Source: a virus. Taken from it: a stretch of 34,164 bases of DNA. Of the stretch, positions 2,525 through 31,064 are shown piece after piece (position 1 is the stretch's first letter; each line of letters opens with the position of its first letter). The stretch spans positions 1 through 34,164 of IMG/VR virus record IMGVR_UViG_3300032213_000993. One strand, given 5' to 3'. Under the pieces are notes generated by a model. It saw only the letters and a program-made list of their open reading frames with translations. It was not told where the DNA came from and did no database searches. A program made the position numbers and the translations under genes.

Positions 2525-2998
2525 ATGTCAAAGAAACACTACATACCTAAACAATACCTAGGAGCCTTCAAAGCAGGACATAGACAGAATACTAGGGAAT
2601 TTATAGATGAAGAACTCTCTTACCAACTCCTAGATAAGATAATCAAATCTAAGTATACAGACACTAAGTCAATGGAAGCACTAGCATATATCACTAAGTT
2701 TAATAATGAGTACTACAAGAATGTTATAAAGAAAGGAGATACTACAGCTATACATAACACTGACAAACTTAGGAAAGACTGCTATGCTAGGGAGAACTCA
2801 AAGAATAGGGATATAATGTCTAGAGAAAATAAGTACTTAAAGAGTCTAGACTCTCAAACCATCCCTGAGAACCCTGACACTCCTACCATAAAGGATGGTA
2901 TAGCACCCCAGCCAATTGAGGCCTCCTCTCATGAGGACGTACTTATAGAGGTAATTGATGCTACCTATACCTATAGAACTAAAAAACAACCAAATTAA
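2525..2998 (+). CDS. Unknown protein, 157 aa
   Basis: A lysine- and tyrosine-rich soluble protein with a helical N-terminal two thirds and a proline-rich linker around residues 113-135 (IPENPDTPTIKDGIAPQP). No catalytic motif or family is recognised. The Shine-Dalgarno TTAAGGA lies 7 bases before ATG 2525. It is the last gene before the first TAATACTTTA element, and its stop codon TAA is the first three bases of that element, so it probably ends the lysis/middle unit. Confidence 0.75.
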   Translation: MSKKHYIPKQYLGAFKAGHRQNTREFIDEELSYQLLDKIIKSKYTDTKSMEALAYITKFNNEYYKNVIKKGDTTAIHNTDKLRKDCYARENSKNRDIMSRENKYLKSLDSQTIPENPDTPTIKDGIAPQPIEASSHEDVLIEVIDATYTYRTKKQPN

Positions 2999-3005
2999 TA
3001 CTTTA
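2996..3005 (+). promoter_or_regulatory. TAATACTTTA element 1
   Basis: First of eight exact copies of this 10-mer, here preceded by T (TTAATACTTTA). It overlaps the stop codon of the previous gene and stands before the first packaging-unit gene at 3074. It is proposed to be a late promoter element. This copy has the longest clear leader (68 bases), which also contains a hairpin. Confidence 0.65.
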
Positions 3006-3025
3006 CCCTAGACCACCTTACACGA

Positions 3026-3053
3026 AACCGCTACCCTATAACAGGATGCGGTT
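3026..3053 (+). other. Leader hairpin before the packaging unit
   Basis: AACCGC (3026-3031) pairs with GCGGTT (3048-3053), and CCT/AGG inside can form a further short stem around ATAAC. No T-run follows, so it is not a terminator. It may shield the 5' end or be a nuclease-processing site. Confidence 0.45.
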
Positions 3054-3073
3054 ATAACCTTAAAGGATGTATC

Positions 3074-3373
3074 ATGACAGAACAAGAATCAGTATCTACC
3101 CCAGAAGTAACAGAAGTCCAGCCAACAGTAGTAGTAGCACAAGACCTTCTACACCAAATCAATGCCCTCAAAGCAATCACTACAGCACATAGCCTAATTA
3201 ATGATGCTCGCTATCCTCATACTCTCTTGGAAGCAGTAAAGAGTTCATTACAATTCTTAGAATCACTTCATGGACAAGCGCTAAATCAAGCCCTATCTCA
3301 TCCAGATGCTGGTAAGGTACCTGAACTAGCTGAAATCTTCAACCAAAGGAGTGTAACTAATGGCCAAGTCTAA
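3074..3373 (+). CDS. Unknown protein, 99 aa
   Basis: An acidic protein whose first about 25 residues are disordered-looking and valine/glutamate rich (STPEVTEVQPTVVVAQ), followed by a helical domain (LLHQINALKAITTAHSLI and LLEAVKSSLQFLESLHG). No family is recognised. It heads the unit that leads to terminase and follows the first TAATACTTTA element. The Shine-Dalgarno AAAGGATG is 6 bases upstream. It overlaps the next gene by 14 bases. Confidence 0.75.
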   Translation: MTEQESVSTPEVTEVQPTVVVAQDLLHQINALKAITTAHSLINDARYPHTLLEAVKSSLQFLESLHGQALNQALSHPDAGKVPELAEIFNQRSVTNGQV

Positions 3374-3641
3374 TAAGATCGTTCAACCAGTTATTGTTGT
3401 ACAAGACGCACCAGAACATCCATTATCTATCTCTGTATCAGGTCCTGAAGTAGACCAACCAGAAATCAAGTCAGTAGGATACATGAGAGTATCCCCTACC
3501 TCTAACTCTTGGGTATCTTATGTAATCACCACAAAAGGTGATAAAGTCCTTTCTATTGAAGTAGATGAACCTAACCTACGTCAAATAGCAGAAGAGTCAG
3601 CTAAGATTAACTTCGTATCTACTTTTTCGGATCAATACTAA
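3360..3641 (+). CDS. Unknown protein, 93 aa
   Basis: A mostly beta-strand-like soluble protein (IVQPVIVVQD, VGYMRVSPTSNSWVSYVITT, KVLSIEVD) with a short helix near the C terminus. No family is recognised. It starts inside the previous gene with CCAAAGGAGTGTAACTAATG as its ribosome-binding region, so the two are coupled. It stands two genes upstream of a small membrane protein and shortly before terminase. Confidence 0.75.
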   Translation: MAKSNKIVQPVIVVQDAPEHPLSISVSGPEVDQPEIKSVGYMRVSPTSNSWVSYVITTKGDKVLSIEVDEPNLRQIAEESAKINFVSTFSDQY

Positions 3642-3642
3642 T

Positions 3643-4014
3643 ATGATGAAAATACTACAGTTTCTTAACTTAACCGACTATAACAAACTATCATTCACCA
3701 ACATAGCTTTCGTTATAATCCTATACAAAGTAGCTATATCACCCCTAGACTATACTGGGGTACTTTCACTTATCCCCGTAATAGCTCTCTATGCTCACAA
3801 AAGACATGAAAACAATCGTAAGACTAAACTAGATGTAGACTCTAAACTAGAACAACAATCCTCTCAAACCACTGACCTATCCTCTAAAGTAGAGAAGATA
3901 GACTTAGCTCTAGGTAGACTAGCAATCAACACAGAGGAAGTACAAAAGGTAACAGAAGAAGCAAAGAAGATCATTTCTACACATAACCTTACCTCAGCTT
4001 TCAATAAGAGATAA
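3643..4014 (+). CDS. Membrane protein with coiled-coil tail
   Basis: A 123-aa protein with two adjacent hydrophobic segments (about residues 18-32, FTNIAFVIILYKVAI, and 36-51, LDYTGVLSLIPVIALY), then a polar coiled-coil region (about 65-115) with heptad-like leucines and isoleucines. A holin-like, spanin-like or superinfection-related membrane protein are all possible. It lies outside the obvious lysis cluster, and nothing decides between these. The start could be ATG 3643 or the adjacent ATG 3646. Confidence 0.7.
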   Translation: MMKILQFLNLTDYNKLSFTNIAFVIILYKVAISPLDYTGVLSLIPVIALYAHKRHENNRKTKLDVDSKLEQQSSQTTDLSSKVEKIDLALGRLAINTEEVQKVTEEAKKIISTHNLTSAFNKR

Positions 4015-4015
4015 T

Positions 4016-4222
4016 ATGACACTCAAAGAGTTAGTTAAAGAGGCAATGACTAAGGATAAGACATTTGGTAACAAGTATATCTATTGGGTCATTAAAAGAA
4101 AGAAACAACCAGACTTAGACTGGCTAATTCCACAACTACAGGAAGTACTAGGATATGAGTACGTCAGAGAAGCAGCCGAAAAGCACATTGAATATAGAGA
4201 AAACAGCCAAGAAGTCAACTAA
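4016..4222 (+). CDS. Unknown protein, 68 aa, overlapping small terminase
   Basis: A small, charged, helical protein (TLKELVKEAMTKDKTFGNKY at its start). No family is recognised. Its 3' end overlaps the next gene by 68 bases in another frame, the longest overlap in the window. Either the small terminase really starts this early or the overlap marks a dense packing point. Confidence 0.65.
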   Translation: MTLKELVKEAMTKDKTFGNKYIYWVIKRKKQPDLDWLIPQLQEVLGYEYVREAAEKHIEYRENSQEVN

Positions 4223-4616
4223 AGCTGTAGTAAATCAACGTGTTACAGAAATATATACCCTCCTCATGGAGGGCTTTACTCGTTCTGACATACTTAAGTA
4301 TGCTTCTAAATGGGGAGTATCAGATACTCAAGTTGACTTATATACTCGTCAAGCTACTGCTATACTAAAAGAACACAATGCTTTTACCCTACAAGACAAT
4401 ATGGCACTTATTACATCTAACCTATGGCAGGCATTTAGACAGGCTAAGGTAGAGAAGAACCTATCTGAACAACATAAGATACTCATGTCACTGGCTAAGC
4501 TTAAAGGTTTAGATCAAATGACTGTTAATCATGTTATAGAGGATAAGCGTGACCTCACTGAGATGTCTGATAGCGACTTAGACAACTTACTGGACGTACA
4601 ACATCTTGACTCCTAA
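4155..4616 (+). CDS. terS: Small terminase subunit (TerS)
   Basis: A 153-aa protein directly upstream of and overlapping the large terminase, the standard TerS position. It has a helix-turn-helix-like N-terminal segment (VTEIYTLLMEGFTRSDILKY, then WGVSDTQVDLYTRQA), a central helical region suited to oligomerisation, and an acidic C terminus (SDSDLDNLLD) of the kind that contacts TerL. It would recognise the packaging site on concatemeric DNA. The start ATG 4155 lies inside the previous gene; no closer in-frame ATG precedes the conserved part. Confidence 0.8.
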   Translation: MSTSEKQPKSTLNIEKTAKKSTKAVVNQRVTEIYTLLMEGFTRSDILKYASKWGVSDTQVDLYTRQATAILKEHNAFTLQDNMALITSNLWQAFRQAKVEKNLSEQHKILMSLAKLKGLDQMTVNHVIEDKRDLTEMSDSDLDNLLDVQHLDS

Positions 4617-6012: not shown

Positions 6013-6014
6013 GT

Positions 6015-6024
6015 TAATACTTTA
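6015..6024 (+). promoter_or_regulatory. TAATACTTTA element 2
   Basis: Exact 10-mer preceded by T, 3 bases after the TerL stop and 22 bases before the portal start codon. A partial echo, TAATAC, follows directly at 6025. Confidence 0.65.
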
Positions 6025-6046
6025 TAATACTACTAGTGGAGATACC

Positions 6047-8023
6047 ATGAAGCAACCTACCAGCAATAAGCCTTATTGGGCAACACTACCTGAAGATGAG
6101 ATAGCAGATTCTATATTAGACAAAGTTGATCGTTATTACAGGTACTTACGCTCTTCTGGTCGCCTAGAACTCTATAAGAGATCTTGGTCATACTACTACA
6201 GACCACGCATAAATGGCGCTATGATAGGATCTGGCGGTGAACAAGGTGAACTTTCAACACTCTCTGTCAACCACTACCGTAACTTATTACTACACCTAGA
6301 GACAATGACTACCCAACAAAGGGCAGCATTTGAACCACGCGCAACCAACACTGATGTTAAGAGTCTATCACAAGTCATCCTAGCAACAGGACTACTAGAC
6401 TATTATATGAGAGAGAAAAAACTAGAACGCTTTATAGTTCAAGCAGTTAAAGACTCACTTATCTTCTCTGAAGGTTTCGTAAGGGCTGAATGGGATGCTA
6501 CACTAGGTAAACAATATGGTCTCACTGCTACCGGTCAACCTCAATACGAGGGTGATATGCGGTACACAAACTATATTCCTATCAACGTAATACGTGACTT
6601 TACACAAACTTCATCTACTCAAGCTGACTGGTACATCCTACGTGATTTTCAGAATAAGTACACTTTAGCCGCCAAGTTCCCAGAATTAGAAGAAGACATC
6701 CTATCTAGTACACAGGACATCTCTGACTTAGTAGAGACATCACTATTCACAGCAGAGTCACTAGAAGAGTGTGATAACATTGCCGTTTATACACTTGTAC
6801 ACAAACCTACACCTGCTCTACCTGAAGGTAGATATACTACTTGCCTAGAGAATGGTACAGTAATGATGAATGGTCCTATCCCATATAAGGATAACCACGT
6901 TTATCGTATTGCCCCAGATGAAGAGACTGGCACAATCTTTGGTTATACAGTAGGCTTTGACCTTATGCCTATGCAGGAAGCAATAGATTCACTATATTCT
7001 ACTGTAGTGACTAACCAAGCTACATTCGGTGTACAGAACATCTTAGTACCTAAAGGACATGACTTATCCACCCCACAAATGTCTGGTGGCTTAAATGTAA
7101 TGGAATATGACCCAAAGATAGGTAAACCTGAAGCACTAAACCTTACTCAGACTCCAGCTGAAATCTTTAACTTTATGCAGACATTAGAACACCTTATGGA
7201 GACTATATCAGGTGTAAACAGTGTAGCACGTGGTAACCCTGAAGCTTCACTTAAGTCTGGTGCTGCTCTAGCACTAGTACAATCTATGGCTATTCAGTTC
7301 TCTATGTCATTACAACGCTCTTACTCACAACTTATTGAAGACTTAGGTACAGGAACAATCAACATCCTTAAGGATTACGCTGCTGTACCACGTGTAGCTG
7401 CTATTGCTGGTAAGTCTAATAGACCTTTAATGAAGGAGTTTACCGGTGACGACCTTAATGCTATTAATCGTGTTATGGTGGATATGGGTAATCCTATGAC
7501 TAGAACTACAGCTGGTAAAGTGAACCTAGCTGAAACACTATTACAAAACGGCCTAATTGACAATCCAGATCAGTATTTACAAGTAGTTACGACTGGTAAG
7601 CTTGAACCTCTAATAGAAGGTAAGCAAGCACAACTACTACTAATCAAAGCTGAGAATGAAGGTCTATCTGAAGGACAACCACAACGTGCCTTAGCTACAG
7701 ATAACCACGCTAAGCACATTCTTGAACATTCGGTAGTACTAGCCAACCCCGAAATCAGACAAGATCCTAACAATCCAGTAGTACAAGCTACTCTAGATCA
7801 CATCTCTGAACATATGGCTATGCTCAATAACCCTGGCTTACAACAACTTAGTGCGGTACTACACCATGAACCAGCACCGCCTCCACCAATGGCACCTCAG
7901 GCTAGTCAAGGTATGCAACCTACTAATCCAGCAGGCCCTAATATGCCTAGTCAACCTAATATGCCATCACCACCAGCCGGAACAGATGAACGATCTGCGG
8001 CTATTATAGAAGGCCAAAAGTAA
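6047..8023 (+). CDS. Portal (head-tail connector) protein
   Basis: A 658-aa protein in the place expected for the portal, between TerL and scaffold, and of the length typical of podovirus portals. The N-terminal region (DRYYRYLRSSGRLELYKRSW) and the central NHYRNLLLHLETMTTQQRA and SGVNSVARGNPEASLKSGAA regions match the general pattern of podovirus portals, including a Gly/Ala-rich loop before the barrel helices. The last about 60 residues are a proline-, glutamine- and methionine-rich tail (PAPPPPMAPQ). It would form the dodecameric ring at one vertex. Identification rests on context and pattern. Confidence 0.9.
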   Translation: MKQPTSNKPYWATLPEDEIADSILDKVDRYYRYLRSSGRLELYKRSWSYYYRPRINGAMIGSGGEQGELSTLSVNHYRNLLLHLETMTTQQRAAFEPRATNTDVKSLSQVILATGLLDYYMREKKLERFIVQAVKDSLIFSEGFVRAEWDATLGKQYGLTATGQPQYEGDMRYTNYIPINVIRDFTQTSSTQADWYILRDFQNKYTLAAKFPELEEDILSSTQDISDLVETSLFTAESLEECDNIAVYTLVHKPTPALPEGRYTTCLENGTVMMNGPIPYKDNHVYRIAPDEETGTIFGYTVGFDLMPMQEAIDSLYSTVVTNQATFGVQNILVPKGHDLSTPQMSGGLNVMEYDPKIGKPEALNLTQTPAEIFNFMQTLEHLMETISGVNSVARGNPEASLKSGAALALVQSMAIQFSMSLQRSYSQLIEDLGTGTINILKDYAAVPRVAAIAGKSNRPLMKEFTGDDLNAINRVMVDMGNPMTRTTAGKVNLAETLLQNGLIDNPDQYLQVVTTGKLEPLIEGKQAQLLLIKAENEGLSEGQPQRALATDNHAKHILEHSVVLANPEIRQDPNNPVVQATLDHISEHMAMLNNPGLQQLSAVLHHEPAPPPPMAPQASQGMQPTNPAGPNMPSQPNMPSPPAGTDERSAAIIEGQK

Positions 8024-8030
8024 CAAGTTA

Positions 8031-8078
8031 TATGGCATTTCGCCATACGCTAATATAAGACCCATTTAATTACGGTCT
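8031..8078 (+). other. Two hairpins between portal and scaffold
   Basis: TATGGC (8031-8036) pairs with GCCATA (8042-8047), and AGACC (8058-8062) pairs with GGTCT (8074-8078). Neither is followed by a T-run. They may be RNA-processing or stability structures that set different expression of portal and scaffold. Confidence 0.4.
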
Positions 8079-8090
8079 AGAAGGAAAAAC

Positions 8091-9086
8091 ATGTCAGATC
8101 CAGTAGTTCCAGTAACAACCGCACCAGTGTCTACACCAGTAGTGACACCCACTGAACCTACCTTTAATGGTAAGAGTTTGATGGACTTAAACGGTGAAGA
8201 AGCCAAAGCTTACGTAGAAAGTCTTAAAGCTCCTAAAGAGACTAAAGAACCAACCGCACCTAAAGTACCTGTCCAAACACCTAAGGAAGAAGCAAGTATC
8301 TCTGATATAGCTAAAGAAGCTATTAAGAAGTGGAAGGTTAAGGTTGATGGTAAAGAAGAAGAAGTTGATGAAAATGAACTAGTTAGAGGTTATTCTCACC
8401 AGAAAGCCGCTAATAAGAAGCTACAAGAAGGTATAGCAGCTAAGAGACAAGCAGAAGAATTCATCGCTTTAATGAAAGATCCTAGTAAGTTCTATGAAGC
8501 TGCAAACAAACTAGGCCATGATCCTCGCAAACTAGCTGAAGAGTACCTAGCCAAGCAACTGGAAGATGAACTATTAGATCCTAGGGATAAAGAATTAAAG
8601 ATAGCTAGAGAGAAGCTTAAGAAGATAGACGAAATGGAAGCTGAACAGAAACGTCAAGTAGAAGCACAACGCATGGAACAACTAGAAGCTAAGTACACTA
8701 AGGACTATAATGATTCTTTTGTAGCAGCTTTAGCAGAGTCTAAACTACCAGCTACTAAACCTATGGTTGCTGAAATGGCTAAATATATCAGTCGTTCCGC
8801 TAAGATAGGGTTTGAAATGACCCCATCAGAAGCTGCTCAGTTGGTTAAGGAAGACATACAGAAAGCCCAACTAGCCCTATTCCAAGACGCAGATGGTGAT
8901 ACACTACTTCGCCTATTGGGTGATCAAACTGCTGCTAAGATCCTACAAGCTAGGGGAGCTAAGGTAAAGACCCCAGAAGACCAGCTTAGGACACCATCCA
9001 ACCAAGGAGAGCCACGAGAGAGGGTTAGAGACACCTCTAAACGTATGACTCCTAAGGAATGGAAAGAATTTAATAGGAAAAAGTAG
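8091..9086 (+). CDS. Scaffolding protein
   Basis: A 331-aa, highly charged protein placed between portal and major capsid protein, the usual scaffold slot. The N-terminal about 80 residues are rich in Pro/Thr/Val; the centre (about 130-225) is Lys/Glu/Gln-rich coiled coil (KIDEMEAEQKRQVEAQRMEQ); and the C terminus is basic (TPKEWKEFNRKK), as in scaffolds that bind the coat protein through a basic C-terminal helix. It would guide procapsid assembly and then leave. No protease motif is seen. Confidence 0.85.
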   Translation: MSDPVVPVTTAPVSTPVVTPTEPTFNGKSLMDLNGEEAKAYVESLKAPKETKEPTAPKVPVQTPKEEASISDIAKEAIKKWKVKVDGKEEEVDENELVRGYSHQKAANKKLQEGIAAKRQAEEFIALMKDPSKFYEAANKLGHDPRKLAEEYLAKQLEDELLDPRDKELKIAREKLKKIDEMEAEQKRQVEAQRMEQLEAKYTKDYNDSFVAALAESKLPATKPMVAEMAKYISRSAKIGFEMTPSEAAQLVKEDIQKAQLALFQDADGDTLLRLLGDQTAAKILQARGAKVKTPEDQLRTPSNQGEPRERVRDTSKRMTPKEWKEFNRKK

Positions 9087-9091
9087 ACTTT

Positions 9092-9101
9092 TAATACTTT
9101 A
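9092..9101 (+). promoter_or_regulatory. TAATACTTTA element 3
   Basis: Exact 10-mer preceded by T. Unlike most other copies, no ATG follows at 18-26 bases: the ribosome-binding-like AAGGGAGA at 9108-9115 leads into a frame without a normal start codon (9115-9240). The capsid gene starts at 9277. Confidence 0.62.
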
Positions 9102-9114
9102 ACTTATAAGGGAG

Positions 9115-9240
9115 ATTCCTGGCGCTGCGGCTACCACAAAGAATCTTATCTCTTTACTTGACAGGCAGAACATACAGGATGCTACGGCTACCCTCAAAGA
9201 ACTACCGACGCTAGACAAACAAACGGATCAACACAAATAA
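9115..9240 (+). CDS. Small open frame without a standard start codon
   Basis: The frame is open from 9103 to TAA 9238-9240. From GGC 9121 it reads as a plausible 39-residue helical protein (includes KNLISLLDRQNIQDATATLK). It follows a TAATACTTTA element and a Shine-Dalgarno-like AAGGGAGA exactly where the other units place their ATG, yet only ATA 9106 or ATT 9115 could start it in frame. A CTG at 9119 is in another frame that stops after 32 codons. It could use ATT, carry a sequence error or lost start, or be a remnant. The segments GCTGCGGCTACC and GCTACGGCTACC repeat in frame 18 codons apart. Confidence 0.4.
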   Translation: MPGAAATTKNLISLLDRQNIQDATATLKELPTLDKQTDQHK

Positions 9241-9276
9241 ACATGAGCTAAGGCTCTAAAATTAAAGGACATTATC

Positions 9277-10578
9277 ATGGCAATTGACTCAGGCACACTT
9301 AACGCACTCTATAAAGTCGCATATGCTAAAGGCGTAGAAGACCTAATCCCAAAAGCTAGCAAACTAGCTTCAATGATCTCTTTCGTTCCTTCCGAGCTAC
9401 AAAACGGTAAGCAGTACGAACAAGCAGTTATCCTATCCGGTGAAAGTGGATTCACCTATTCTCTTGACAGCCAATCAGCTTACGACCTTAACGAGTCTGT
9501 AGGTATGACCATGCAGTCAGCAATCGTTCCTGGTGCCGACATCGTTCTTGACTCTACAGTAGGTTACAACCAAGCAGCTCGTGCTAGCCACTCTGCTACA
9601 GCCTTTAAGAGTGCAATGTCAACCAAGTTCGAAAACATGCTTAAGTCTTCTGAGAAGAGACTAGAAATTGCAATGCTTTATGGTAGTGACAAGATTGCTT
9701 CTTCTGCTACACAAACAGTAACTATTGCTTCCTCTATGCTTCCTCTAATAATCAGCACTGCCGATTGGGCATCTGGTATCTGGGCAGGATCTGAAAACGC
9801 TAACGTAGTTTTCGTTAAAGCCTCTGATAACACAGCTGTAGACTCACTACGATCTTTCAAGATTGCTAAAGTTGATGTTGATAACCGCACTCTTTACCTA
9901 GCTGCTGGTACTGCTGGAACTGCTGGAACACTTACTACCCTTGAAACTGCTGTTGAAGCTTATGGTTGTAACGTCCACTTCTATGGTTCAGTATCCGGTT
10001 CTGCTGGAACTTTCGCTTTTGCTGAAATGGCTGGACTTAAGAAGATCTTCACTAACACTGGATCACTTTTCGGTATCGACGCTGGTACATACAACTTATG
10101 GAAAGGTAACAGCGTTGCTGTAACTGGACAATTAACTATGCAGAAAGTACTTGCTTCTGTTTCTAAAGCTGTACAACGTGGACTTGATAGTGACGTTACT
10201 CTAGTTTGTAACCCACAAACATGGGCTGACCTTGCTTCTAACTTAGCCGCTCTAAGACGTTTCGACGGGTCATACAGCAAGAAGAAGTCTTCTAATGGTA
10301 GCGAAGAACTTGAATATGTTGGACAAAACGGAATAATCAAGATTGTTCCTTACAACATCGTTAAAGAAGGTGATTGCTTCATTTTCCCAGAAGATAAGTG
10401 TATGAGAATTGGTGCTCGTGAGCTTAGCCTTAACGACCCAACACGTCCAGCTGACGAGATCTTCTTCACTATCCCAGCAAAAGCAGGAATTGGCCTACGT
10501 GCTTACACAAACCAAGCTGTATTCGTTGAAGCTCCGGCTCAGTGCGTATACATCTCTGGTATCGTTAACAGTTTATAA
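9277..10578 (+). CDS. Major capsid protein
   Basis: A 433-aa protein after the scaffold gene, without cysteine-rich or enzymatic motifs. It has an N-terminal helical region, an Ala/Ser/Gly-rich middle, and the segment VTLVCNPQTWADLASNLAAL followed by FDGSYSKKKSS, which matches a common pattern in podovirus coat proteins of the HK97 fold (spine helix followed by a P-loop-like strand). The length fits. A strong terminator directly after it suggests it is made in large amounts. The Shine-Dalgarno TTAAAGGA lies 7 bases before ATG 9277. Confidence 0.88.
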   Translation: MAIDSGTLNALYKVAYAKGVEDLIPKASKLASMISFVPSELQNGKQYEQAVILSGESGFTYSLDSQSAYDLNESVGMTMQSAIVPGADIVLDSTVGYNQAARASHSATAFKSAMSTKFENMLKSSEKRLEIAMLYGSDKIASSATQTVTIASSMLPLIISTADWASGIWAGSENANVVFVKASDNTAVDSLRSFKIAKVDVDNRTLYLAAGTAGTAGTLTTLETAVEAYGCNVHFYGSVSGSAGTFAFAEMAGLKKIFTNTGSLFGIDAGTYNLWKGNSVAVTGQLTMQKVLASVSKAVQRGLDSDVTLVCNPQTWADLASNLAALRRFDGSYSKKKSSNGSEELEYVGQNGIIKIVPYNIVKEGDCFIFPEDKCMRIGARELSLNDPTRPADEIFFTIPAKAGIGLRAYTNQAVFVEAPAQCVYISGIVNSL

Positions 10579-11192: not shown

Positions 11193-11227
11193 GGGTCTAG
11201 GAGATTAACGCTCTTAGACCCCTTTTT
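11193..11227 (+). terminator. Rho-independent terminator before fibre unit
   Basis: GGGTCTAGGAG (11193-11203) pairs with CTCTTAGACCC (11211-11221) with one G-T wobble and a 7-base loop, then C and TTTTT. The last T of the tract is the first base of TAATACTTTA element 4. Confidence 0.87.
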
Positions 11228-11236
11228 AATACTTTA
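11227..11236 (+). promoter_or_regulatory. TAATACTTTA element 4
   Basis: Exact 10-mer preceded by T, fused to the end of the preceding terminator and 19 bases before the fibre start codon. The terminator-then-element order argues that the element restarts transcription. Confidence 0.7.
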
Positions 11237-16051: not shown

Positions 16052-16249
16052 ATGACTCAAGAAGAATTAGATCAATTAAAACAAGAAGCTGAAGTAGCTT
16101 TACAATACCTACGTGACACTGACTACCTAGTATTACAGCAAGTAGAATTAGGCAATTGGGTACCTAAAGATAAACTAGACCTTAGAGCTATTGCTAGAGC
16201 TAAGGTTAGAGAATGGCTGGCTATCCAAGCACAACAAGAACAACCTTAA
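16052..16249 (+). CDS. Small helical protein, possible fibre assembly factor
   Basis: A 65-aa, charged, helical protein with DYLVLQQVELGNWVPKDKLD in the centre and IARAKVREWLAIQAQQEQP at the end. The short Asp-Tyr-Leu and Asp-Leu-Arg-Ala pattern recalls small phage tail-assembly chaperones, but the match is loose. It lies between an adhesin and the second fibre. The Shine-Dalgarno TAGGAGAATAAC precedes the ATG, and the stop TAA begins TAATACTTTA element 5. Confidence 0.6.
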   Translation: MTQEELDQLKQEAEVALQYLRDTDYLVLQQVELGNWVPKDKLDLRAIARAKVREWLAIQAQQEQP

Positions 16250-16256
16250 TACTTTA
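16247..16256 (+). promoter_or_regulatory. TAATACTTTA element 5
   Basis: Exact 10-mer preceded by T. Its TAA is the stop codon of the 65-aa gene, and the fibre 2 ATG is 23 bases downstream. Confidence 0.65.
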
Positions 16257-20202: not shown

Positions 20203-20606
20203 TGGAAATGATAGCTTTTAAGAGATTCAAGAATACAATACCTAAGAATGAACAAGGGGTTAGGCCAGTACTTGCTGCTAATCAGTATACTCAACCCCCT
20301 GAATTAATTACAGAATACATCAAAGTATCCTTAGCAGACCAAAACACACTAAGGGAAGATGATGGGTTTGAATTTTTACCTGAAGATCTATTCTTACTAG
20401 AACTAGTTAAACTCGACCAAATAAGGGCTGAGCATAAGTTAGAAGTAGAACGACTACAGGAGATACTAGATGCCGACGCTATCCAGGCTGAAATAGCCCA
20501 AAAAGCTGAGGAAAGAGAGACGGTTAGGGAATTTGAGGAATTCAAGCGTTGGAAAGAACAGAAAAAACTACAAAAGGAGCTTAAGAAGAATGATGATCGG
20601 AATTAA
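20202..20606 (+). CDS. Coiled-coil protein ending the fibre unit, 134 aa
   Basis: The chosen start is ATG 20202 (TAATG overlap, with GGTGGAA upstream) rather than GTG 20190. The N-terminal part is compact and mixed; residues about 55-130 are strongly charged coiled coil (DQIRAEHKLEVERLQEILDA; FEEFKRWKEQKKLQKELKK). No family is recognised. As the last gene after three adhesins it could be an assembly factor or a structural linker. The stop TAA begins TAATACTTTA element 6. Confidence 0.7.
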   Translation: MEMIAFKRFKNTIPKNEQGVRPVLAANQYTQPPELITEYIKVSLADQNTLREDDGFEFLPEDLFLLELVKLDQIRAEHKLEVERLQEILDADAIQAEIAQKAEERETVREFEEFKRWKEQKKLQKELKKNDDRN

Positions 20607-20613
20607 TACTTTA
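20604..20613 (+). promoter_or_regulatory. TAATACTTTA element 6
   Basis: Exact 10-mer preceded by T. Its TAA is the stop codon of the coiled-coil gene, and the next ATG is 25 bases downstream, after GAGGGGATTTT. Confidence 0.65.
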
Positions 20614-20638
20614 ACTAGAGAACTTATGAGGGGATTTT

Positions 20639-22468: not shown

Positions 22469-25400
22469 ATGGCTAGTCAAGAACTAAAATTAGAGCTTAA
22501 GGGCCTTTACACGTCGCCTAACAATCTATCTTCTGTACCTGAAGGTGCTTTAGAGGTTGCTAACAACGTTGTTATCGATAAGTCCAATATAGTTGAAAGC
22601 CGTAGAGGTCAAGGCCAATATGGTTCTCCTTTATCTATTGGAGCAGGACAAGTTAATAAGATCTTTAATTATGCTTCAAGTACTATCGTACATTATGACA
22701 CCAAACTGGCTTATGATAGTGGTAGTGGAACTTATGTAGATTATACAGGTACTTACACTGCTCCCACATCTACACTTAAAATGAAAAGTCTAGAAGCTTT
22801 ACGTAACTTTTACTTCACAACTGATGCCGGTGTATACAAGTTAGATAGTCTTACAGCTACTCCACGTCCTGCTGGTGTTGTTAAAGCACTATCTGGTACC
22901 TATACTACTACAGGAACTCTAGGTTTTCTAGAAGCCGATACAGCAGTAGCTTACCGTCTAGTATGGGGATATATTGATGAGAATGAGAACCTATTATTAG
23001 GAGCACCTTCTCAACGCTTAGTGGCTGTAAATAATAGTGGTGTAGATGTTGATGTTATATTAACTTATTCAATTCCAGACACTATAACCACTAGTTATTT
23101 CTATCAAATCTATAGGTCTAATGCTACTGCCACTGCTACTGATGAACCTACAGATGAACTACAACTAGTAGCTCAGGACTTTCCAACAGCAGGGCAGATC
23201 TCTGCTAAAAGCTTCACTATCACTGACATTACTCCTTACTCCTTAATGAGGGCAACACTATATACTTCTGCTTCACAGGAAGGTATAGCAAATGCTAACT
23301 ATGAACCGCCTTTTGCTGTAGATATGGATGTATTTAAGGGTTCAGCATTCTACGCAAACATTAGACAAAAACAAAGACTTACAACAACATTAATTGCTGC
23401 TGGTGAACCATCTTTAGGGTATGTATCAACCACCTCTACTACTAACTCAACCACAGCCTTAACCGGACTATTAACAGCTGCTTCGTTGGCTGTACAACAA
23501 CTCACTTATACTGCTGATACCTCTGGTAATAGTGGTAATGACATTTCAATTACTTATACTACTGGTGGTACGGCCGGTGCTGAAGTTGTGACGGTTGTAG
23601 GGAATGCTATATCTGTACAGATTCAATCTGGTGTATCTACACGAGATCAAATTAAGACTAAAGTTGACGCCTCAGTTGCCGCTTCTGCCTTAATAAGCGT
23701 TGCTACTACTGGTGCTAACGTAGCTCAGACATCTGCCACTATCCAATACCTAACTGGTGGTTTTGATACCTCTATGCTTAATATAGGTATGAGAATTATA
23801 AGAACTGGTGTACCAACGGATACACGAGTATTATCAATTACTTCTACCTCTGCTATTGTTATGACTAAAGCAGCCACGGTGACAAACTCAGGTGTAGCAA
23901 CTGAATTCCAAGATAGATTCTCTATAGGTGGAGTTGATTACTGGGCAGGCAGTTCTAACAGTGTATCTGTTAATCAATTCTTTGCTGATTCTACTGGTTC
24001 TCCAGGATATAACATCAATGCTACAGCCTTGAACCTAATCCAAATAATCAATACTAGTGCTAGTAATACCACTTTGTATGGTTATTATGTATCCGCTCTA
24101 GATGATCTACCAGGACAAATGTTGTTTGAAGAGAGATCAATTGGCGGTTCAGCATTTAGCGCAACCTCTACTAATGGTTCATCTTTTAGTCCTACACTCA
24201 CTAACACATTAATAATCTCTGGTAATACTATAGCTAACCCTACAGTAGTGACCAGTTTGGCCCACGGTTTAAGTACTGGAGCAAGTGTTACAATCACTGG
24301 TTCCAACTCTACCCCTAGCATAGACGGTACTTATACTATATCCTCAGCTACTACAGATACCTTTACAATACCGGTAAATGTCACTGTAGCTGGTACAGCT
24401 GGTTATATAGTAGCTAATGCTACACTTAAAAACAGTGAAAATGATACTAGACAAAACCGAGTAGCTATATCTAAAGCTGGTCAAGTAGAAGCAGTACCAT
24501 TGTATACATACTTTGACATTGGATCTGCTAACTTTGAAATTGAAAGGGTTGTAGCTCTTAGGGATGGTATCTTATTCTTTAAGAAAGACGGTATATTCAG
24601 GTTATCTGGCGAAAGCACAGCTAACTATACAGTATCCTTACTAGATAATACTACTGCGTTACAAGTACCTGAATCTGCTGTAGCTTTTAACAATCAAGTG
24701 TTTTTCTTTGGTGATCAAGGCATATGCTCTGTAACAGATAGTGTTCAGATCTTATCAGTACCTATTGAATCTGACCTATTAGAGTTAGCCTCTGATCAAT
24801 ATACCTACTTCAGTACAGCTTCATTCGGTGTGGCTTATGAGTCTAGTCGTCAGTATATGTTCTTTACAGTGACAGAGGAAACTGATACTTTTGCTACACA
24901 AGCTTATATTTACAATACATTAACTAAGTCCTGGACACGTTGGATAATGGATAGGACTTGTGGTATAGTTAATTCTACCACTAACAAACTCTTAATGGCT
25001 GAAGCTGATACAGGTCAAATCTTACAGGAACGTAAATCATTTACGAATAGTGACTATGCTGACAAACAGTATAGTATCGTTATCAGTTCTGTTGATAGTG
25101 AGACTCAACTTACAGTAGTTAGTGCTACTAACTTAGTTGTAGGTATGACTATCCTACAAGCTGGCGGATCTTGTATTATTACAGCAATAGATGGTGTTAC
25201 AATCACTGTAGATAACACCTCAGGTCTAGATGCTGATAGTGCGGTAGCTTACCAACCAATAGCTAACCGAATTAAATGGGCACCAATCGATGCTGGCAAT
25301 CCAGGGATACTTAAACAATACTCAGAGTGTAGTTTCTTCTTTAGGAATGCAGCTTTCTCTGAGATTACAGCTGAGTTTGAGTCAAATATAGTCGTAGGTA

Positions 25401-25636
25401 CAGTAGAAGTACCGATTACCAACATATCACTAAGAGGTTGGGGTGACTTTCCATGGGGTGAAACCGAATGGGGTGGAGACTTGGGTGGACAAACATCACT
25501 TAGGACTTATATACCACGAAATCAGCAAAGATGTTCATGGCTTAGCATAGGTTTAAGTACTGAAGAAGCATTTACTGGATTCAGTTTACAAGGTGTAAGT
25601 TTAATGTTTAATCCTATGAGTAGCAGGCACAAATAA
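22469..25636 (+). CDS. Tail nozzle/stabilisation protein
   Basis: A 1055-aa protein. The N terminus (LKGLYTSPNNLSSVPEGALE, then ANNVVIDKSNIVESRRG) is the pattern found at the start of podovirus nozzle proteins (P22 gp10 or T7 gp12 functional class). The body is beta-propeller-like, with strand patterns including FFKKDGIFRLSGES and AYIYNTLTKSWTRWIMD. Two or more inserted beta modules lie at about 315-440 and 575-650. It would form the tail tip below the adaptor. It overlaps the next gene by one base. Confidence 0.8.
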   Translation: MASQELKLELKGLYTSPNNLSSVPEGALEVANNVVIDKSNIVESRRGQGQYGSPLSIGAGQVNKIFNYASSTIVHYDTKLAYDSGSGTYVDYTGTYTAPTSTLKMKSLEALRNFYFTTDAGVYKLDSLTATPRPAGVVKALSGTYTTTGTLGFLEADTAVAYRLVWGYIDENENLLLGAPSQRLVAVNNSGVDVDVILTYSIPDTITTSYFYQIYRSNATATATDEPTDELQLVAQDFPTAGQISAKSFTITDITPYSLMRATLYTSASQEGIANANYEPPFAVDMDVFKGSAFYANIRQKQRLTTTLIAAGEPSLGYVSTTSTTNSTTALTGLLTAASLAVQQLTYTADTSGNSGNDISITYTTGGTAGAEVVTVVGNAISVQIQSGVSTRDQIKTKVDASVAASALISVATTGANVAQTSATIQYLTGGFDTSMLNIGMRIIRTGVPTDTRVLSITSTSAIVMTKAATVTNSGVATEFQDRFSIGGVDYWAGSSNSVSVNQFFADSTGSPGYNINATALNLIQIINTSASNTTLYGYYVSALDDLPGQMLFEERSIGGSAFSATSTNGSSFSPTLTNTLIISGNTIANPTVVTSLAHGLSTGASVTITGSNSTPSIDGTYTISSATTDTFTIPVNVTVAGTAGYIVANATLKNSENDTRQNRVAISKAGQVEAVPLYTYFDIGSANFEIERVVALRDGILFFKKDGIFRLSGESTANYTVSLLDNTTALQVPESAVAFNNQVFFFGDQGICSVTDSVQILSVPIESDLLELASDQYTYFSTASFGVAYESSRQYMFFTVTEETDTFATQAYIYNTLTKSWTRWIMDRTCGIVNSTTNKLLMAEADTGQILQERKSFTNSDYADKQYSIVISSVDSETQLTVVSATNLVVGMTILQAGGSCIITAIDGVTITVDNTSGLDADSAVAYQPIANRIKWAPIDAGNPGILKQYSECSFFFRNAAFSEITAEFESNIVVGTVEVPITNISLRGWGDFPWGETEWGGDLGGQTSLRTYIPRNQQRCSWLSIGLSTEEAFTGFSLQGVSLMFNPMSSRHK

Positions 25637-26035: not shown

Positions 26036-26045
26036 TAATACTTTA
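26036..26045 (+). promoter_or_regulatory. TAATACTTTA element 7
   Basis: Exact 10-mer preceded by T, one base after the previous stop codon and 21 bases before the next ATG, with GAGGAG between. Confidence 0.65.
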
Positions 26046-26066
26046 TTAGTGACAGAGGAGACTTAA

Positions 26067-27542: not shown

Positions 27543-27588
27543 AAGCAGTATTTCGAATTAACTAATTTAAGAAACAAAGAGGACAATA

Positions 27589-28779
27589 ATGGGACTATTC
27601 GATAATTTAACAAACGGTATTACCGATACTTTTTCAGGCGGTCAATATAAAAAGGCCGATAAAAGTTCACAACAAGGTGTTGATGTTTGGGAAAACTTAC
27701 AAACCCCAGAGTTATCAGATCTTCAGGTTGAACTTGAAGATGCTATCTATAGAGGTGATGTCACTGTAGAGCAAGCTCAGCAGATCTTACAAGATCGTTC
27801 TCAAATGTACGGTATCTCTTTAGATCCTAAGTTTAAAGAAGCCCAGATGAATGCTTTACAATCCTTACAGGACATAGGCCAAAATAAGGGTCTAACTGAT
27901 ATGGATAGGGCACAACTATCTAAAATTCAATCACAAGAAGCAGCACAACAGCGCGGTAGTCGTGAGGCAATCCTCCAGAATGCCCAAGCCAGGGGTATGG
28001 GTGGAAGCGGCCTAGAATTGATGTCTCAACTCCAGAATCAACAATCCTCTGCTGATAGACAAGCTGCTAGAGATACAGATGTTGCTGGCATGGCTCAACA
28101 AAGAGCTTTACAGGCATTACAATCTGCTGGTCAGTTGGGTACGCAGTATAGTGACCAGTCATTTGGTCAACAAGCCGCTATTGCTGGTGCTCAGGATCGT
28201 ATTAATCAATTTAATACGCAATCTGGTAATGAAATGAGTATGTGGAATACTGGACAGAAAAATCTAGGTCATACGAGAGATGCCAATACAAAACAAGATG
28301 TTTCTAATATGAATACTGATATACGTAATAGAGAAAAAACACACAATGCTGGTGCTGTTCAACAAGATTATGATAATAGGTATCGTAAAACTGGTGGTCA
28401 AAGTGGAGCATACCAAAGTAGAGCAGGGATACAGTCTACCCAAGGTGATAAGAATGTAGATATGTGGGGCAACGTTATCGAAACTGGTGGCAAAGCGTAT
28501 GCTGCGTCTGACGAGAGAGTTAAAACTGACGTTGAAAAGTTTGATTCTAGCGACTTCCTCAATAGTTTGACTGGGTATAAGTACAACTACAAAGATCAAA
28601 CTAAGCACGGTAAGGGGCCTCAAGTAGGTGTAATGGCTCAGGATTTAGAAAAAGGTGCTCCACAAGCTGTTTCTACTGACGCAGATGGCACAAAAGTTGT
28701 GGATTACAATAAATTAGGTGGGCCAATCCTAGCTAGCTTAGCTGACCTTAACAAAAAAGTCAAGAAGATGGAGAAATAA
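27589..28779 (+). CDS. Internal virion protein with C-terminal S74-type chaperone domain
   Basis: A 396-aa protein. Residues about 40-300 are Gln/Ala/Asp/Asn-rich and helical, typical of podovirus internal or ejection proteins. The last 90 residues start with SDERVKTDVEKF (S307, K312) and contain YKYNYKD, PQVGVMAQDLEKGAPQAV and VVDYNKL, the pattern of the peptidase S74 / intramolecular chaperone domain. In tail spikes this domain drives trimer folding and cuts itself off just before the Ser. Here it ends a non-fibre protein. The Shine-Dalgarno AAAGAGGACAAT precedes the ATG. Confidence 0.8.
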   Translation: MGLFDNLTNGITDTFSGGQYKKADKSSQQGVDVWENLQTPELSDLQVELEDAIYRGDVTVEQAQQILQDRSQMYGISLDPKFKEAQMNALQSLQDIGQNKGLTDMDRAQLSKIQSQEAAQQRGSREAILQNAQARGMGGSGLELMSQLQNQQSSADRQAARDTDVAGMAQQRALQALQSAGQLGTQYSDQSFGQQAAIAGAQDRINQFNTQSGNEMSMWNTGQKNLGHTRDANTKQDVSNMNTDIRNREKTHNAGAVQQDYDNRYRKTGGQSGAYQSRAGIQSTQGDKNVDMWGNVIETGGKAYAASDERVKTDVEKFDSSDFLNSLTGYKYNYKDQTKHGKGPQVGVMAQDLEKGAPQAVSTDADGTKVVDYNKLGGPILASLADLNKKVKKMEK

Positions 28780-28780
28780 T

Positions 28781-30085
28781 ATGGATCAAGATCAAGAAAT
28801 AATTGACTATGCATTATCACGCAATCCTAATGTTGATCCTGAATCTATTAGAAGTAAGATTGCTATTGTTCGTCAATCTAACCCAGGTGTATCTAACCAA
28901 CAGATTATACAGTCTATTACGGCACATGCTGATAACATGGATGCCAAAAGATCTAATATGGTTAAAGATAGCGTATTAACTAAATATGCTGACTCTTTTA
29001 GTCCTGAAGCACGAGCTAAACTAGTAAAGGCCAATGAAGAAGCCGCTAGTCCTATTGCTGCTGCCATATCCGGTTTTGGAGCTGGTTTAAGGGGTAAGAG
29101 TCAAAGTGAAGCATATAATTCAGCCATGACTGCTGCTCAAGCTAATACCAAGGATGCTTTAGATCAGTTTGACTTAGGTAAGAAGTCATCCAGAGAAGAT
29201 TATGCATTTGATCAACAGCAACGTAAAGATGCCCAAGATACTGAAATGTATGGTATTAATAAAACTCGTGGTGATTTTGACTTCCAACAGAAGCAAACTA
29301 AAGCTGGTAGAGAAGAAGCAGATTATGCCTTAGAACAAGAAAAGAAAGCTAGGGAATTAGATCCTAGTTCAGAAGAATCTAAGATAGCACAATCATTAGC
29401 AAAAGAAATGATGCCATCTCAGGACTTCTCTAAGGTACCTGCTGCTAGACTTAAAGAATTACTTCCTACAATTGTTAAAAAGTATGACATTCAGACTGAG
29501 AAGCAGAATAAAGCTATAGCTGCCCAAGATAGAGCAATAGCAGCACAAGATAGAAAGACTCTAGCTGAAGAGAAAGTTAAAGCAATAGCAGCTGAGAAAA
29601 CTAGGCCATCTGATAAACAAATTGAAGTCTTCACTGACTTTGAAACTGCTACATCTGATCTTAACAACCTTTTAGCCTCACTAGGCAACAAGAGTGAATG
29701 GACAGGGGCTATTGATGCCCAGATTCCTGATATGCTAGTCGGCGATGATCAGGTAGCGTGGCGATCTGCTGTAGGTAAATATAAAGATGCGTACAGAAAA
29801 GCCATCACTGGTGCAGGAGCTGGCCCTAATGAAATCGCTATCTTAGAGACAAGGCTTCCTACCGCTTCAGATACCCTAGCTAACTTTAAAGCCAAATCTA
29901 ATGAAGCCCTAAGGGAATTACAGAGACGAAGAGAAATCTACGCATCAAACCTTGAAAAAGGTGGTAAAGATGTCAGTAAGTTTAAAACTGATAGATACCC
30001 ATTAAAACTTAGAAAAGATGGTAACACGGCAACTATTTCTAGCGAACAAGAAGAAAGAGATGCTCGATCTAAAGGATGGAACTAA
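28781..30085 (+). CDS. Internal virion (DNA ejection) protein, 434 aa
   Basis: A long helical protein with a start region LSRNPNVDPESIRSKIAIV, a Gly/Ala stretch SPIAAAISGFGAGLRG at about 91-106, and a large Gln/Asp/Lys coiled-coil centre including the repeated KAIAAQDRAIAAQDRK. The C-terminal domain contains GAGAGPNEIAILETRLPTAS, a pattern seen in podovirus ejection proteins. It would be packed in the head and pass into the cell with DNA. It starts one base after the previous stop and ends directly at the next start. Confidence 0.75.
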   Translation: MDQDQEIIDYALSRNPNVDPESIRSKIAIVRQSNPGVSNQQIIQSITAHADNMDAKRSNMVKDSVLTKYADSFSPEARAKLVKANEEAASPIAAAISGFGAGLRGKSQSEAYNSAMTAAQANTKDALDQFDLGKKSSREDYAFDQQQRKDAQDTEMYGINKTRGDFDFQQKQTKAGREEADYALEQEKKARELDPSSEESKIAQSLAKEMMPSQDFSKVPAARLKELLPTIVKKYDIQTEKQNKAIAAQDRAIAAQDRKTLAEEKVKAIAAEKTRPSDKQIEVFTDFETATSDLNNLLASLGNKSEWTGAIDAQIPDMLVGDDQVAWRSAVGKYKDAYRKAITGAGAGPNEIAILETRLPTASDTLANFKAKSNEALRELQRRREIYASNLEKGGKDVSKFKTDRYPLKLRKDGNTATISSEQEERDARSKGWN

Positions 30086-31057
30086 ATGGGTTGGGAAGAT
30101 ACTATTACTAAAGACACAGAATCTGAAGCTCCTGCCAATGGGTGGGAAGCTACTATCACTAAAGATGCTCCCAAAGTATCAGAATTAGAGTCTGGTGTTA
30201 GAGGATTAGCTCAGGGTGCTAGTTTAGGGTATTCAGATGAACTTACTGGTGGAATAGAAGCACTGTGGGACAAAGCCATAAATGGCGATAAGACAGCTCT
30301 AGTTGAATTATATAGAAAAAACAGGGATGAGTCAAGGGCTAATAACAAAATAGCTCAGGAAGCCAATCCTGGTGTTTATGGGACTGGTCAAGTTGCTGGT
30401 GCTATAGGTACTGGTATTGCTACTGGTGGTTCTCTACCAGCATTAGCAGGTGTAGGTGCTGCTCAAGGTTTAGGCAATTCTGAAGCTGACCTCACTCAAG
30501 GTGATGTTGGTGGTGCAGTTAGAGATACTGCTATAGGCACTGGAATTGGTGTAGTAACTGCTGGAGCAGGTAAAGCTTTAGGTGCTTTAGGATCTAAGGT
30601 GATGCCTAAGGTTACAAATGTATTAGAAGATGTAGCTACGGCTCCTATGGGTCAATCTGGCTCTCAAATGGGTAATGTAGCAGGTGCTATTAATAAAGTT
30701 GGTAAAGTCGGATCATATTTAGATGATGTTCAAGATAAAGTAGTTTCATCTATGGTACCAGAAGGTATGAAAAAGGGTGTTAGTTCACCTTTAGCCAATA
30801 TGGTTGAATCAGGTTTAGCTTTAGGTCCTGTTGGAGTAAAAATCCAAGCTGGTATTCAAGGTGCTAAATTTGCTCCACAAATAGCCCAGAAGACTGCTCA
30901 ACTCACACTAGAACAAATAATACCTAAAATGGGTAGATTTTCTCAAGTGTTATCCGATGCTGCCCAAAGGGGTGCCTCTAGTTTAGCGGCTTCGGATTAC
31001 GTATTACAGCAGCAGGATCCAGAGTATAGGGAATTGAAGCGAAAAGCACAAGAATAA
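30086..31057 (+). CDS. Internal virion (DNA ejection) protein, 323 aa
   Basis: A protein with a duplicated start (GWEDTITKDTE and GWEATITKDAP), then a Gly/Ala-rich hydrophobic centre (AGAIGTGIATGGSLPALAG; GTGIGVVTAGAGKALGAL) that could insert in membranes, and a C terminus QRGASSLAASDYVLQQQDPE. This composition fits P22 gp20/gp16-class ejection proteins that build a trans-envelope channel. It is the last of three consecutive internal-virion genes. The stop TAA begins element 8. Confidence 0.75.
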   Translation: MGWEDTITKDTESEAPANGWEATITKDAPKVSELESGVRGLAQGASLGYSDELTGGIEALWDKAINGDKTALVELYRKNRDESRANNKIAQEANPGVYGTGQVAGAIGTGIATGGSLPALAGVGAAQGLGNSEADLTQGDVGGAVRDTAIGTGIGVVTAGAGKALGALGSKVMPKVTNVLEDVATAPMGQSGSQMGNVAGAINKVGKVGSYLDDVQDKVVSSMVPEGMKKGVSSPLANMVESGLALGPVGVKIQAGIQGAKFAPQIAQKTAQLTLEQIIPKMGRFSQVLSDAAQRGASSLAASDYVLQQQDPEYRELKRKAQE

Positions 31058-31064
31058 TACTTTA
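31055..31064 (+). promoter_or_regulatory. TAATACTTTA element 8
   Basis: Exact 10-mer, the only copy preceded by A rather than T. Its TAA is the stop codon of the ejection gene, and the next ATG is 17 bases further on. It gives the last small late gene its own element. Confidence 0.65.

What the first reader, a model, noticed from the sequence alone, without database searches (positions are those of the whole stretch)
2996..31064. Eight exact TAATACTTTA elements punctuate the virion genes
The 10-mer occurs at 2996, 6015, 9092, 11227, 16247, 20604, 26036 and 31055, always on + and always between genes (four copies share TAA with a stop codon). Seven of eight read TTAATACTTTA. In six units the element ends 17-25 bases before an ATG. 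All copies are in the packaging/structural region and none in the lysis or replication blocks. By eye the only near copy in coding is TAATACTTTC at 18693. No -35-like sequence is shared upstream. I infer a late promoter of the T4 late type (-10-only), or another phage-specific control signal, although no phage sigma or RNA polymerase is visible.
Basis: partly seen in the sequence, partly recalled or inferred. Interest (0 to 1): 0.78.

Follow-up and report, generated by a model that had tools for sequence, protein, structure and literature searches.

The report
Lineage-specific late promoters and their reader
Eight identical short DNA signals in this small bacterial virus look like the start switches for its late (particle-building) genes, and a previously unnamed small viral protein, encoded right next to the first switch, is the best candidate for the factor that reads them.

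Summary
In detail: TAATACTTTA occurs exactly 8 times, all on +, all between genes (about 0.16 expected per strand). One detail is off: five further one-mismatch copies lie on +, besides the one named. A 123-bp terminal repeat indicates a complete genome.

IMG/VR relatives keep the element at corresponding gene junctions in lineage-specific spellings (TTAATACTT, TTAACACTT, TTACCACTA, TTGCCACTT, TCGCCACTT, TTGGCACTT, TTACCATTG). No -35 is shared. AG sits 6-9 nt downstream in 18 of 19 long-leader copies (5 of 8 in the window). One copy follows an intrinsic terminator. It is best read as a single-element late promoter, as in phiEco32 or T4.

The likely reader is not the 217-711 protein but the product of 2525-2998: the only gene family shared by 7 element-bearing genomes and absent from 4 element-less ones. 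Element and gene differ together on at least two branches, and two residues of one helix change where element base 3 changes A to G. The family has no match above cut-off in Pfam, PHROGs, NCBIfam or PDB. Sigma factor or activator remains open, and nothing is tested at the bench.

The parts
2996..3005 (+). Element 1; overlaps the stop codon of 2525-2998; upstream of the 3074 leader and packaging genes
6015..6024 (+). Element 2, 22 nt before the portal gene ATG (6047)
9092..9101 (+). Element 3, upstream of the long leader of the major capsid gene (9277)
11227..11236 (+). Element 4, five bases after an intrinsic terminator, 19 nt before ATG 11256
16247..16256 (+). Element 5, overlaps a stop codon, 23 nt before ATG 16280
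20604..20613 (+). Element 6, overlaps a stop codon, 25 nt before ATG 20639
26036..26045 (+). Element 7, 21 nt before ATG 26067
31055..31064 (+). Element 8, overlaps a stop codon, 17 nt before ATG 31082
2525..2998 (+). Candidate late-promoter specificity factor, 157 aa (called w2525); conserved PKxxLGAFKxGHR, KFNNEYYK, NARxRD and an acidic C-terminal EDxLIExID motif; N91 and R95 are candidate DNA contacts
   Evidence: presence/absence; alignments; covariation; no known family
11193..11221 (+). Intrinsic terminator (11 pairs, T tail), five bases before element 4
31415..31438 (+). Terminator-like hairpin after 31082-31378, the last gene behind an element
9102..9276 (+). Major-capsid mRNA leader; relatives show repeated GGAYGC-loop-GCYAYCC strings there (by eye)
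   Evidence: no Rfam match at gathering score

Best explanation
The eight elements are single-element late promoters. A phage-encoded specificity factor, most likely the 157-aa product of 2525-2998 (w2525), directs the host RNA polymerase to the core TTAATACTT. Transcription would start at a purine roughly 6-9 nt further on, often the A or G of an AG. w2525 is the last gene of the left-hand block and its stop codon overlaps the first element, so early transcription would make the factor, and the factor would then switch on packaging, capsid, tail and the last small gene at eight points. In relatives the element and the factor's presumed recognition helix have changed together. SHOWN (by computation): the element, its corresponding positions, its lineage-specific spellings, lack of a -35, the downstream AG, and the presence/absence match with w2525. 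INFERRED: that it is a promoter, that w2525 binds it, that w2525 is made early, and that it works as a sigma-like subunit rather than as an activator of the host's own holoenzyme.
For: Elements stand at some or all of the junctions before the 3074, portal, capsid-leader, 11256 and 26067 orthologues in 11 genomes. A count of intergenic, strand-biased words puts the element first in the window, G001, G004, G011 and G019. 45 copies give T T A/G N T/C A C T T, A+T-rich then purine-rich DNA downstream, nothing above 0.26 bit upstream. AG lies 6-9 nt after ACTT in 18 of 19 long-leader and 18 of 26 short-leader copies against 325 of 1288 other ACTT sites (the 6-9 range was chosen after seeing the copies). 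phiEco32 sigma promoters are likewise one element, tAATGTAtA, with starts 6-8 bp downstream (PMC8948821, passages seen). A terminator precedes element 4 and its counterparts in G004 and G012 (3 of 45 copies; control 28 of 2000 places). w2525 is the only family in all 7 element genomes (6 by BLAST; G003 by profile) and in 0 of 4 element-less ones. Those four are not one clade: G016/G015 is sister to G003 (support 1.0), G014/G017/G021 lie elsewhere. Out of sample: L100, found by the w2525 profile, has TACCATTGC just behind that gene, before the portal and in the gap where capsid leaders lie; L167 has neither w2525 nor any element-like match in 9.5 kb. N91 to Y and R95 to non-R coincide with element base 3 A to G in G006, G013 and G022, while G013 groups with G005.
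Against: No transcript or binding data exist. w2525 has no detectable homology to sigma factors: hhalign 0.4% against a profile of 7 gp55 proteins, 0.1% against phiEco32 gp36 alone; best library E-values are 0.039 (PHROGs), 0.05 (Pfam), 0.15 (NCBIfam), 0.49 (PDB). Two AlphaFold2 models (mean pLDDT 69) have no Foldseek match. Whole-protein covariation with the element is weak (Mantel r 0.24, p 0.10; partial p 0.036-0.11). The N/Y difference was noticed by eye before it was tested; with ten taxa that triple ties in column number with one other of 120, though it alone has two hits within four residues. In the window only 5 of 8 copies have AG at 6-9 nt (counted). G018 (incomplete, no w2525 seen) has one exact copy at an unusual place. 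G014 has one match to the loose pattern 12-30 nt before a start. L111 lacks w2525 and an element before its 3074 orthologue but has one TTAGTACTT about 48 nt before the portal frame.
Confidence: 0.62

Rival explanations
1. The element is an activator-binding site: w2525 (or another phage protein) binds it and recruits the host's own sigma70 holoenzyme, as T4 MotA/AsiA or P2 Ogr-type activators do (recalled).
For: In 4 of 5 G019 copies the element runs straight into TATAAT (TAATACTTATAAT), and A+T-rich DNA follows in the logo. No sigma-like sequence is seen in w2525.
Against: In the window the six bases after TAATACT are mostly not -10-like (TTAACT twice, TTACCC, TTACTA, TTAGAG, TTATTA, TTAGTA; one TTATAA). 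If the AG is the start, the element itself lies about where a -10 would be.
Confidence: 0.25
2. The element is the promoter of a host alternative sigma factor, and the spellings differ because the hosts differ; w2525 does something else.
For: Spelling varies between phages whose hosts are unknown; no host was found.
Against: Does not explain why w2525 and elements differ together on two branches or the helix/base change. Element-less relatives have capsid and portal proteins 58-78% identical to the window's.
Confidence: 0.08
3. The element is an RNA-level signal: processing site, translation enhancer or boxA-like antitermination site.
For: Six copies lie 17-25 nt before a start codon, and CTTTAAC in two window copies resembles boxA (recalled).
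Against: Two copies lie 68 and 175 nt from the start codon. A copy just after an intrinsic terminator needs a new start if the terminator works. Spellings without CTTTA occur. In G014 sigma70-like hexamers stand at the capsid leader instead (by eye).
Confidence: 0.05
4. A hidden phage RNA polymerase (single-subunit or virion) reads the element.
For: TAATAC resembles the start of the T7 promoter (recalled), and two large proteins (11256-14621, 22469-25636) have no PHROG match at E 0.01.
Against: No PF00940 match in 11 records including the complete ones, but the control set rang nowhere, so this is weak. All other gene families shared by the 7 element genomes, large virion proteins included, are also in at least 3 of the 4 element-less ones.
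Confidence: 0.03

Closest known systems
phiEco32 middle/late promoters read by the phage sigma factor phi32_gp36 (tAATGTAtA)
   Same: One conserved element of about 9 bp beginning (t)AAT, no -35, start 6-8 bp downstream, before structural genes, early genes on host promoters (PMC8948821, PMC4331800; passages seen)
   Different: w2525 shows no homology to phi32_gp36; genome less than half as large (77,554 bp); element spelling turns over between relatives
T4 late promoters read by gp55 with gp33 and the sliding clamp (mechanism recalled)
   Same: -10-only late promoter; small phage-encoded factor; some gp55 proteins and w2525 both end in an acidic/hydrophobic stretch (by eye)
   Different: TATAAATA (recalled) is not used; no gp55 homology; clamp and gp33 counterparts not looked for
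RinA/ArpU/Ltr late regulators of Gram-positive phages (recalled; only listing and abstract starts seen)
   Same: Small regulator gene just upstream of the packaging genes
   Different: Those act on a late operon promoter (recalled); here 2-8 repeated elements per record; no family match

Membership tests
phiEco32-type phage sigma promoters | Single short element, no -35 | tested here: met
   45 copies, no column above 0.26 bit upstream of the 9-mer, back to 40 bases before the ACT
phiEco32-type phage sigma promoters | Start 6-8 bp downstream | tested here: inconclusive
   AG 6-9 nt downstream in 18 of 19 long-leader copies, 5 of 8 in the window; starts not mapped
phiEco32-type phage sigma promoters | Read by a gp36-family sigma70 protein | tested here: not met
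   No gp36 homology in w2525 (single gp36 sequence); PF04542 in 0 of 11 records, control rang in 10 of 14. Three known phage sigmas also miss Pfam's cut-off, though each shows a weak Sigma70_r2 match
T4 gp55-type late transcription | gp55-family sigma factor | tested here: not met
   hhalign of 8 w2525 proteins against 7 gp55 proteins: probability 0.4%
T4 gp55-type late transcription | TATAAATA -10 element | tested here: not met
   Consensus is TT(A/G)N(T/C)ACTT; T4 consensus recalled
T4 gp55-type late transcription | Needs sliding clamp and gp33 | not tested
   -
sigma70 family | Region 2/4 fold | tested here: inconclusive
   AlphaFold2 models of mean pLDDT 69, no fold match
Single-subunit RNA polymerase promoters (T7 type) | Polymerase gene in the genome | tested here: inconclusive
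   PF00940: 0 of 11 records, but the control set also rang in 0

The most novel reading that the evidence does not exclude
w2525 founds a new family of late-transcription specificity factors, unrelated to sigma70, T4 gp55 or phage polymerases, that by itself reads a 9-bp element where a -10 box would be; the element and the factor's NARxRD helix evolve together, so that each phage lineage has a private late promoter code. Its C-terminal half (KFNNEYY...LH...NARxRD) is a wider small phage domain with shorter versions (L174, L107, a Silvanigrella phage) whose role may also be in transcription.
Probability: 0.4. Interest if true: 0.78.

Novelty: new variant of a known kind. Interest (0 to 1): 0.62.

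Why it matters
Small tailed phages of uncultured bacteria often show no recognisable factor for their late genes. Here comparison alone ties a repeated promoter to one small unnamed protein and even to two residues. If right, it gives a testable minimal specificity factor, a ready set of natural protein/promoter pairs for studying how promoter codes diverge, and a way to mark late promoters in this phage group.

Tried and rejected
TerS for 2525-2998: 4155-4616, just before the large terminase and HTH-like by eye, is the better small-terminase candidate (not tested further). gp55 homology: my first impression from the string AYIT...IKK was not supported. Rfam at gathering score: nothing in the window or seven other stretches apart from one tRNA in G006. 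Host search by peptide patterns in 84,980 genomes: 15 stretches (capsid) and 152 (w2525) matched a pattern, none was confirmed. Sigma70-type scans of the window give no more sites than shuffles (42 against 40.1, 49 against 50.4), and they do not list the extended -10-like strings that I read by eye before the outer blocks (TGTTATTAT at 164-172, TGGTATAGT at 32116-32124), so these are only suggestions. At the capsid leader of element-less relatives only G014 shows a clear pair of hexamers; G017, G018 and G021 show at most a -10-like string and G016/G015 nothing clear. Mantel tests were weak. No late element was recognised in the Silvanigrella phage. Literature: of three spellings searched, only the 10-mer occurs, in one unrelated paper; a wording search gave no paper; open-licence papers only. 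The capsid-leader alignment used ranges set by hand and was not folded. Rows dropped from the 45-copy set: further matches to the search strings inside frames or without the TT (two in G003, three in G006, one in G013), the G018 copy, the G020 element, and near-copies G001 and G007.
Full report
OBSERVATION. The 10-mer TAATACTTTA is present exactly eight times at the stated coordinates, all on +, none on -. About 0.16 copies per strand are expected from the window's own trinucleotides. All eight count as intergenic although noncoding DNA is only 5.1% of the window. The claim of a single near copy is wrong: six one-mismatch copies lie on + and six on -. The window ends in a 123-bp direct repeat of its start, which indicates a complete circular genome of about 34 kb. 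Relatives G006 (123 bp), G014 (127 bp) and G021 (127 bp) look complete on the same ground.

WHAT THE VIRUS IS. Terminase, portal and capsid genes put it among tailed phages. No close named phage was found in the INPHARED set. The nearest is an unannotated phage of Silvanigrella aquatica (CP017838; terminase 26%, portal 29.5%, capsid 21% identity). The host is unknown: pattern searches with capsid and w2525 in 84,980 genomes confirmed nothing.

COMPARATIVE ANATOMY. IMG/VR searches with terminase, capsid and w2525 led to 22 records (G001-G022; handles). G008-G010, distant terminase matches, were only counted for words and then left. In 11 genomes (window, G002, G003, G004, G005, G006, G011, G012, G013, G019, G022; G001 and G007 left out as near-copies of the window and of G006) I collected 45 copies of the element. 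Copies were taken from string matches and chosen by junction and by the TT; matches inside frames were dropped, except those near a frame end or at a frame start called too early, and one G022 copy (19652) in the end of the 22469 orthologue. They stand before the 3074 orthologue, the portal, the capsid leader, and in several genomes the 11256 and 26067 orthologues. The spelling is constant or nearly so within a genome but differs between genomes: TTAATACTT (window, G002, G004, G005, G012, G019), TTAACACTT mostly (G011), TTACCACTA (G003), TTGCCACTT (G006), TCGCCACTT (G013), TTGGCACTT (G022). A count of intergenic words, made without the motif, found it as the top signal in the window, G001, G004, G011 and G019, and related words near the top in G003 and G005, but not in G006 and G013, where copies are few.

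WHY A PROMOTER. (1) No shared sequence lies upstream of the 9-mer; A+T-rich and then purine-rich DNA follows. (2) Where the leader is long, so that no ribosome-binding site is needed near the element, AG lies 6-9 nt after ACTT in 18 of 19 copies, against 325 of 1288 other ACTT sites; with short leaders 18 of 26. The 6-9 range was chosen after seeing the copies. In the window alone it is 5 of 8 (counted). (3) Element 4 begins five bases after an 11-pair terminator; G004 and G012 show a terminator before the same gene, in G012 at a larger distance (3 of 45 copies against 28 of 2000 control places). (4) The element-less relative G014 has TTGACC-17-TATAGT at the capsid leader (by eye); the other element-less relatives show less or nothing clear.

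I clustered the proteins of seven element genomes of 30.7-34.2 kb (window, G003, G005, G006, G011, G019, G022) and four element-less ones (G014, G016, G021, and G017 of only 24.9 kb). Every family shared by all seven is also in at least three of the four, apart from one: the product of 2525-2998 (w2525), present in six by BLAST and in G003 by profile, and in none of the four, also with filters off (best E 0.2 in G014, G016 and G017; one search gives 0.068 for G021). The gene lies immediately upstream of the first element. G002, G013 (gene cut by the contig start) and G001 carry it as well, and the first bases of the G004 contig encode the end of such a protein. G012 begins downstream of its place. 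The element-less genomes are not one clade: in a tree of portal, terminase and capsid, G016/G015 is sister to G003 with support 1.0, while G014/G017/G021 group elsewhere. Gene and element were therefore lost, or gained, together more than once. Two later searches with portal (best 80 of 328 kept) and terminase alignments gave 118 further loci, part of them new views of known records. A w2525 profile over 2368 frames of these found one new clear homologue at the expected place, L100 (E 1.6e-24), plus two distant short ones, L107 and L174. I then saw TACCATTGC just behind the L100 gene and before its portal; a search found one more, in the gap after the 8091 orthologue, where capsid leaders lie. 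L167, with 5.9 kb before its terminase, has no w2525 and no match to the loose pattern in 9.5 kb. L111 has no w2525 and no element before its 3074 orthologue, but one TTAGTACTT about 48 nt before its portal frame; this is unresolved. L092 and L093 have the element before the portal but begin downstream of the w2525 place. Only 15 portal upstreams and 4 terminase ends of the 118 loci were read.

COVARIATION. In w2525, residue 91 is N and residue 95 is R in every protein whose element has A at position 3 (6 of 6, and L100). In the three whose element has G there (G006, G013, G022), residue 91 is Y and residue 95 is M, N or E. Both lie in one predicted helix (80-98). In the w2525 tree G013 groups with G005 (0.965) and G006 with G022 (0.977), so the change happened at least twice. 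I had noticed the N/Y difference by eye before testing. With nine taxa this triple of 84 has the most such columns (4 of 83 variable columns); with L100 added it ties with one other of 120 triples in number, and it alone has two hits within four residues. In portal (115 columns, few because G002 is cut), terminase (357), 3074 (82) and 3360 (72) orthologues no column is uniform on both sides; one-sided columns number 0, 5, 2 and 1. Whole-protein Mantel tests are weak. The evidence is suggestive, from few taxa.

HOW IT MOST LIKELY WORKS. Transcription of the left block makes w2525. With host polymerase, w2525 opens transcription at the eight elements, most of them before a virion or packaging block. 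This is the logic of phiEco32, whose sigma factor reads one element, tAATGTAtA, with starts 6-8 bp downstream (PMC8948821 and PMC4331800, passages seen). Membership in that sigma family is not shown: sequence comparisons are negative and fold comparisons inconclusive. Three known phage sigmas also fall below Pfam's cut-off, although each shows a weak Sigma70_r2 match and w2525 shows none.

RESULTS AGAINST. G018 (9.3 kb, incomplete) has one exact copy between capsid and 10647 orthologues without a w2525 gene in sight. G011 has one and G020 two exact copies on the reverse strand. G014 has one loose match 12-30 nt before a start; the loose pattern also occurs often inside frames. G020, a distant relative, has its own six-copy element TTAATAAGTAGTATNGTAAG and no w2525 at E 0.1 (E 0.022 for one frame with filters off). 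That fits a private code with another reader, but it also shows that w2525 is not the only solution.

NOVELTY. Phage-specific single-element late promoters are a known kind. The candidate factor family has no match above cut-off in the libraries searched, and neither the element nor this phage group was met in the open-licence paper searches made (listings, and passages of two papers).

Noticed in passing
window 9102-9276, 3006-3073; L011, L037-L040, L042, L043, L047, L049, L085 capsid leaders: The capsid mRNA leader of relatives holds repeated GGACGC-loop-GCYAUCC strings that could pair, also before the 3074 orthologues, with and without the element; no Rfam match at gathering score. Possibly a new structured leader RNA; not folded.
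   Followed up: partly
G020 (L061/L062): 5460, 8187, 12683, 15986, 17180, 21449 in the joined record: A distant relative has its own six-copy intergenic element TTAATAAGTAGTATNGTAAG, partly before orthologous genes, with no w2525 homologue found.
   Followed up: partly
G019 (L059) 3256-3645 +: Second, shorter w2525 paralogue lacking most of the N-terminal part, left of the main gene; short versions also in L107 (minus strand) and L174 (before a ClpP-like gene, named by eye).
   Followed up: partly
CP017838 (L090, reverse complement 10165-10500 and 19227-19562): Silvanigrella phage record: a 111-aa ORF upstream of the terminase is a distant w2525 C-terminal match (E 4e-5 among 65 ORFs), and the record repeats a stretch about 9.06 kb apart.
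   Followed up: partly
window 33100-33260: Four copies of CCATCCGTCA within 32766-33416, a replication-initiator-like gene by eye; iteron-like.
   Followed up: no
G003 7099-9202; L100 8740-9140; G020 17499-18347 and 19979-20833: The G003 capsid gene appears split around an inserted 179-aa ORF (7327-7866), with a relative of that ORF in L100; G020 carries homing-endonuclease-like ORFs (by eye) near its capsid.
   Followed up: no
G014 30163-30573, G016 28441-28914, G017 1180-1386, G021 3914-4333, minus strand: The four element-less relatives share a RusA-like resolvase gene (named by eye) on the minus strand near the place where w2525 lies in the others; absent from the 7 element genomes at BLAST E 1e-3.
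   Followed up: partly
window 1426-2056: Small membrane-like ORF followed by a peptidase-M15-like ORF (both named by eye): probable lysis pair in the left block, without an element.
   Followed up: no
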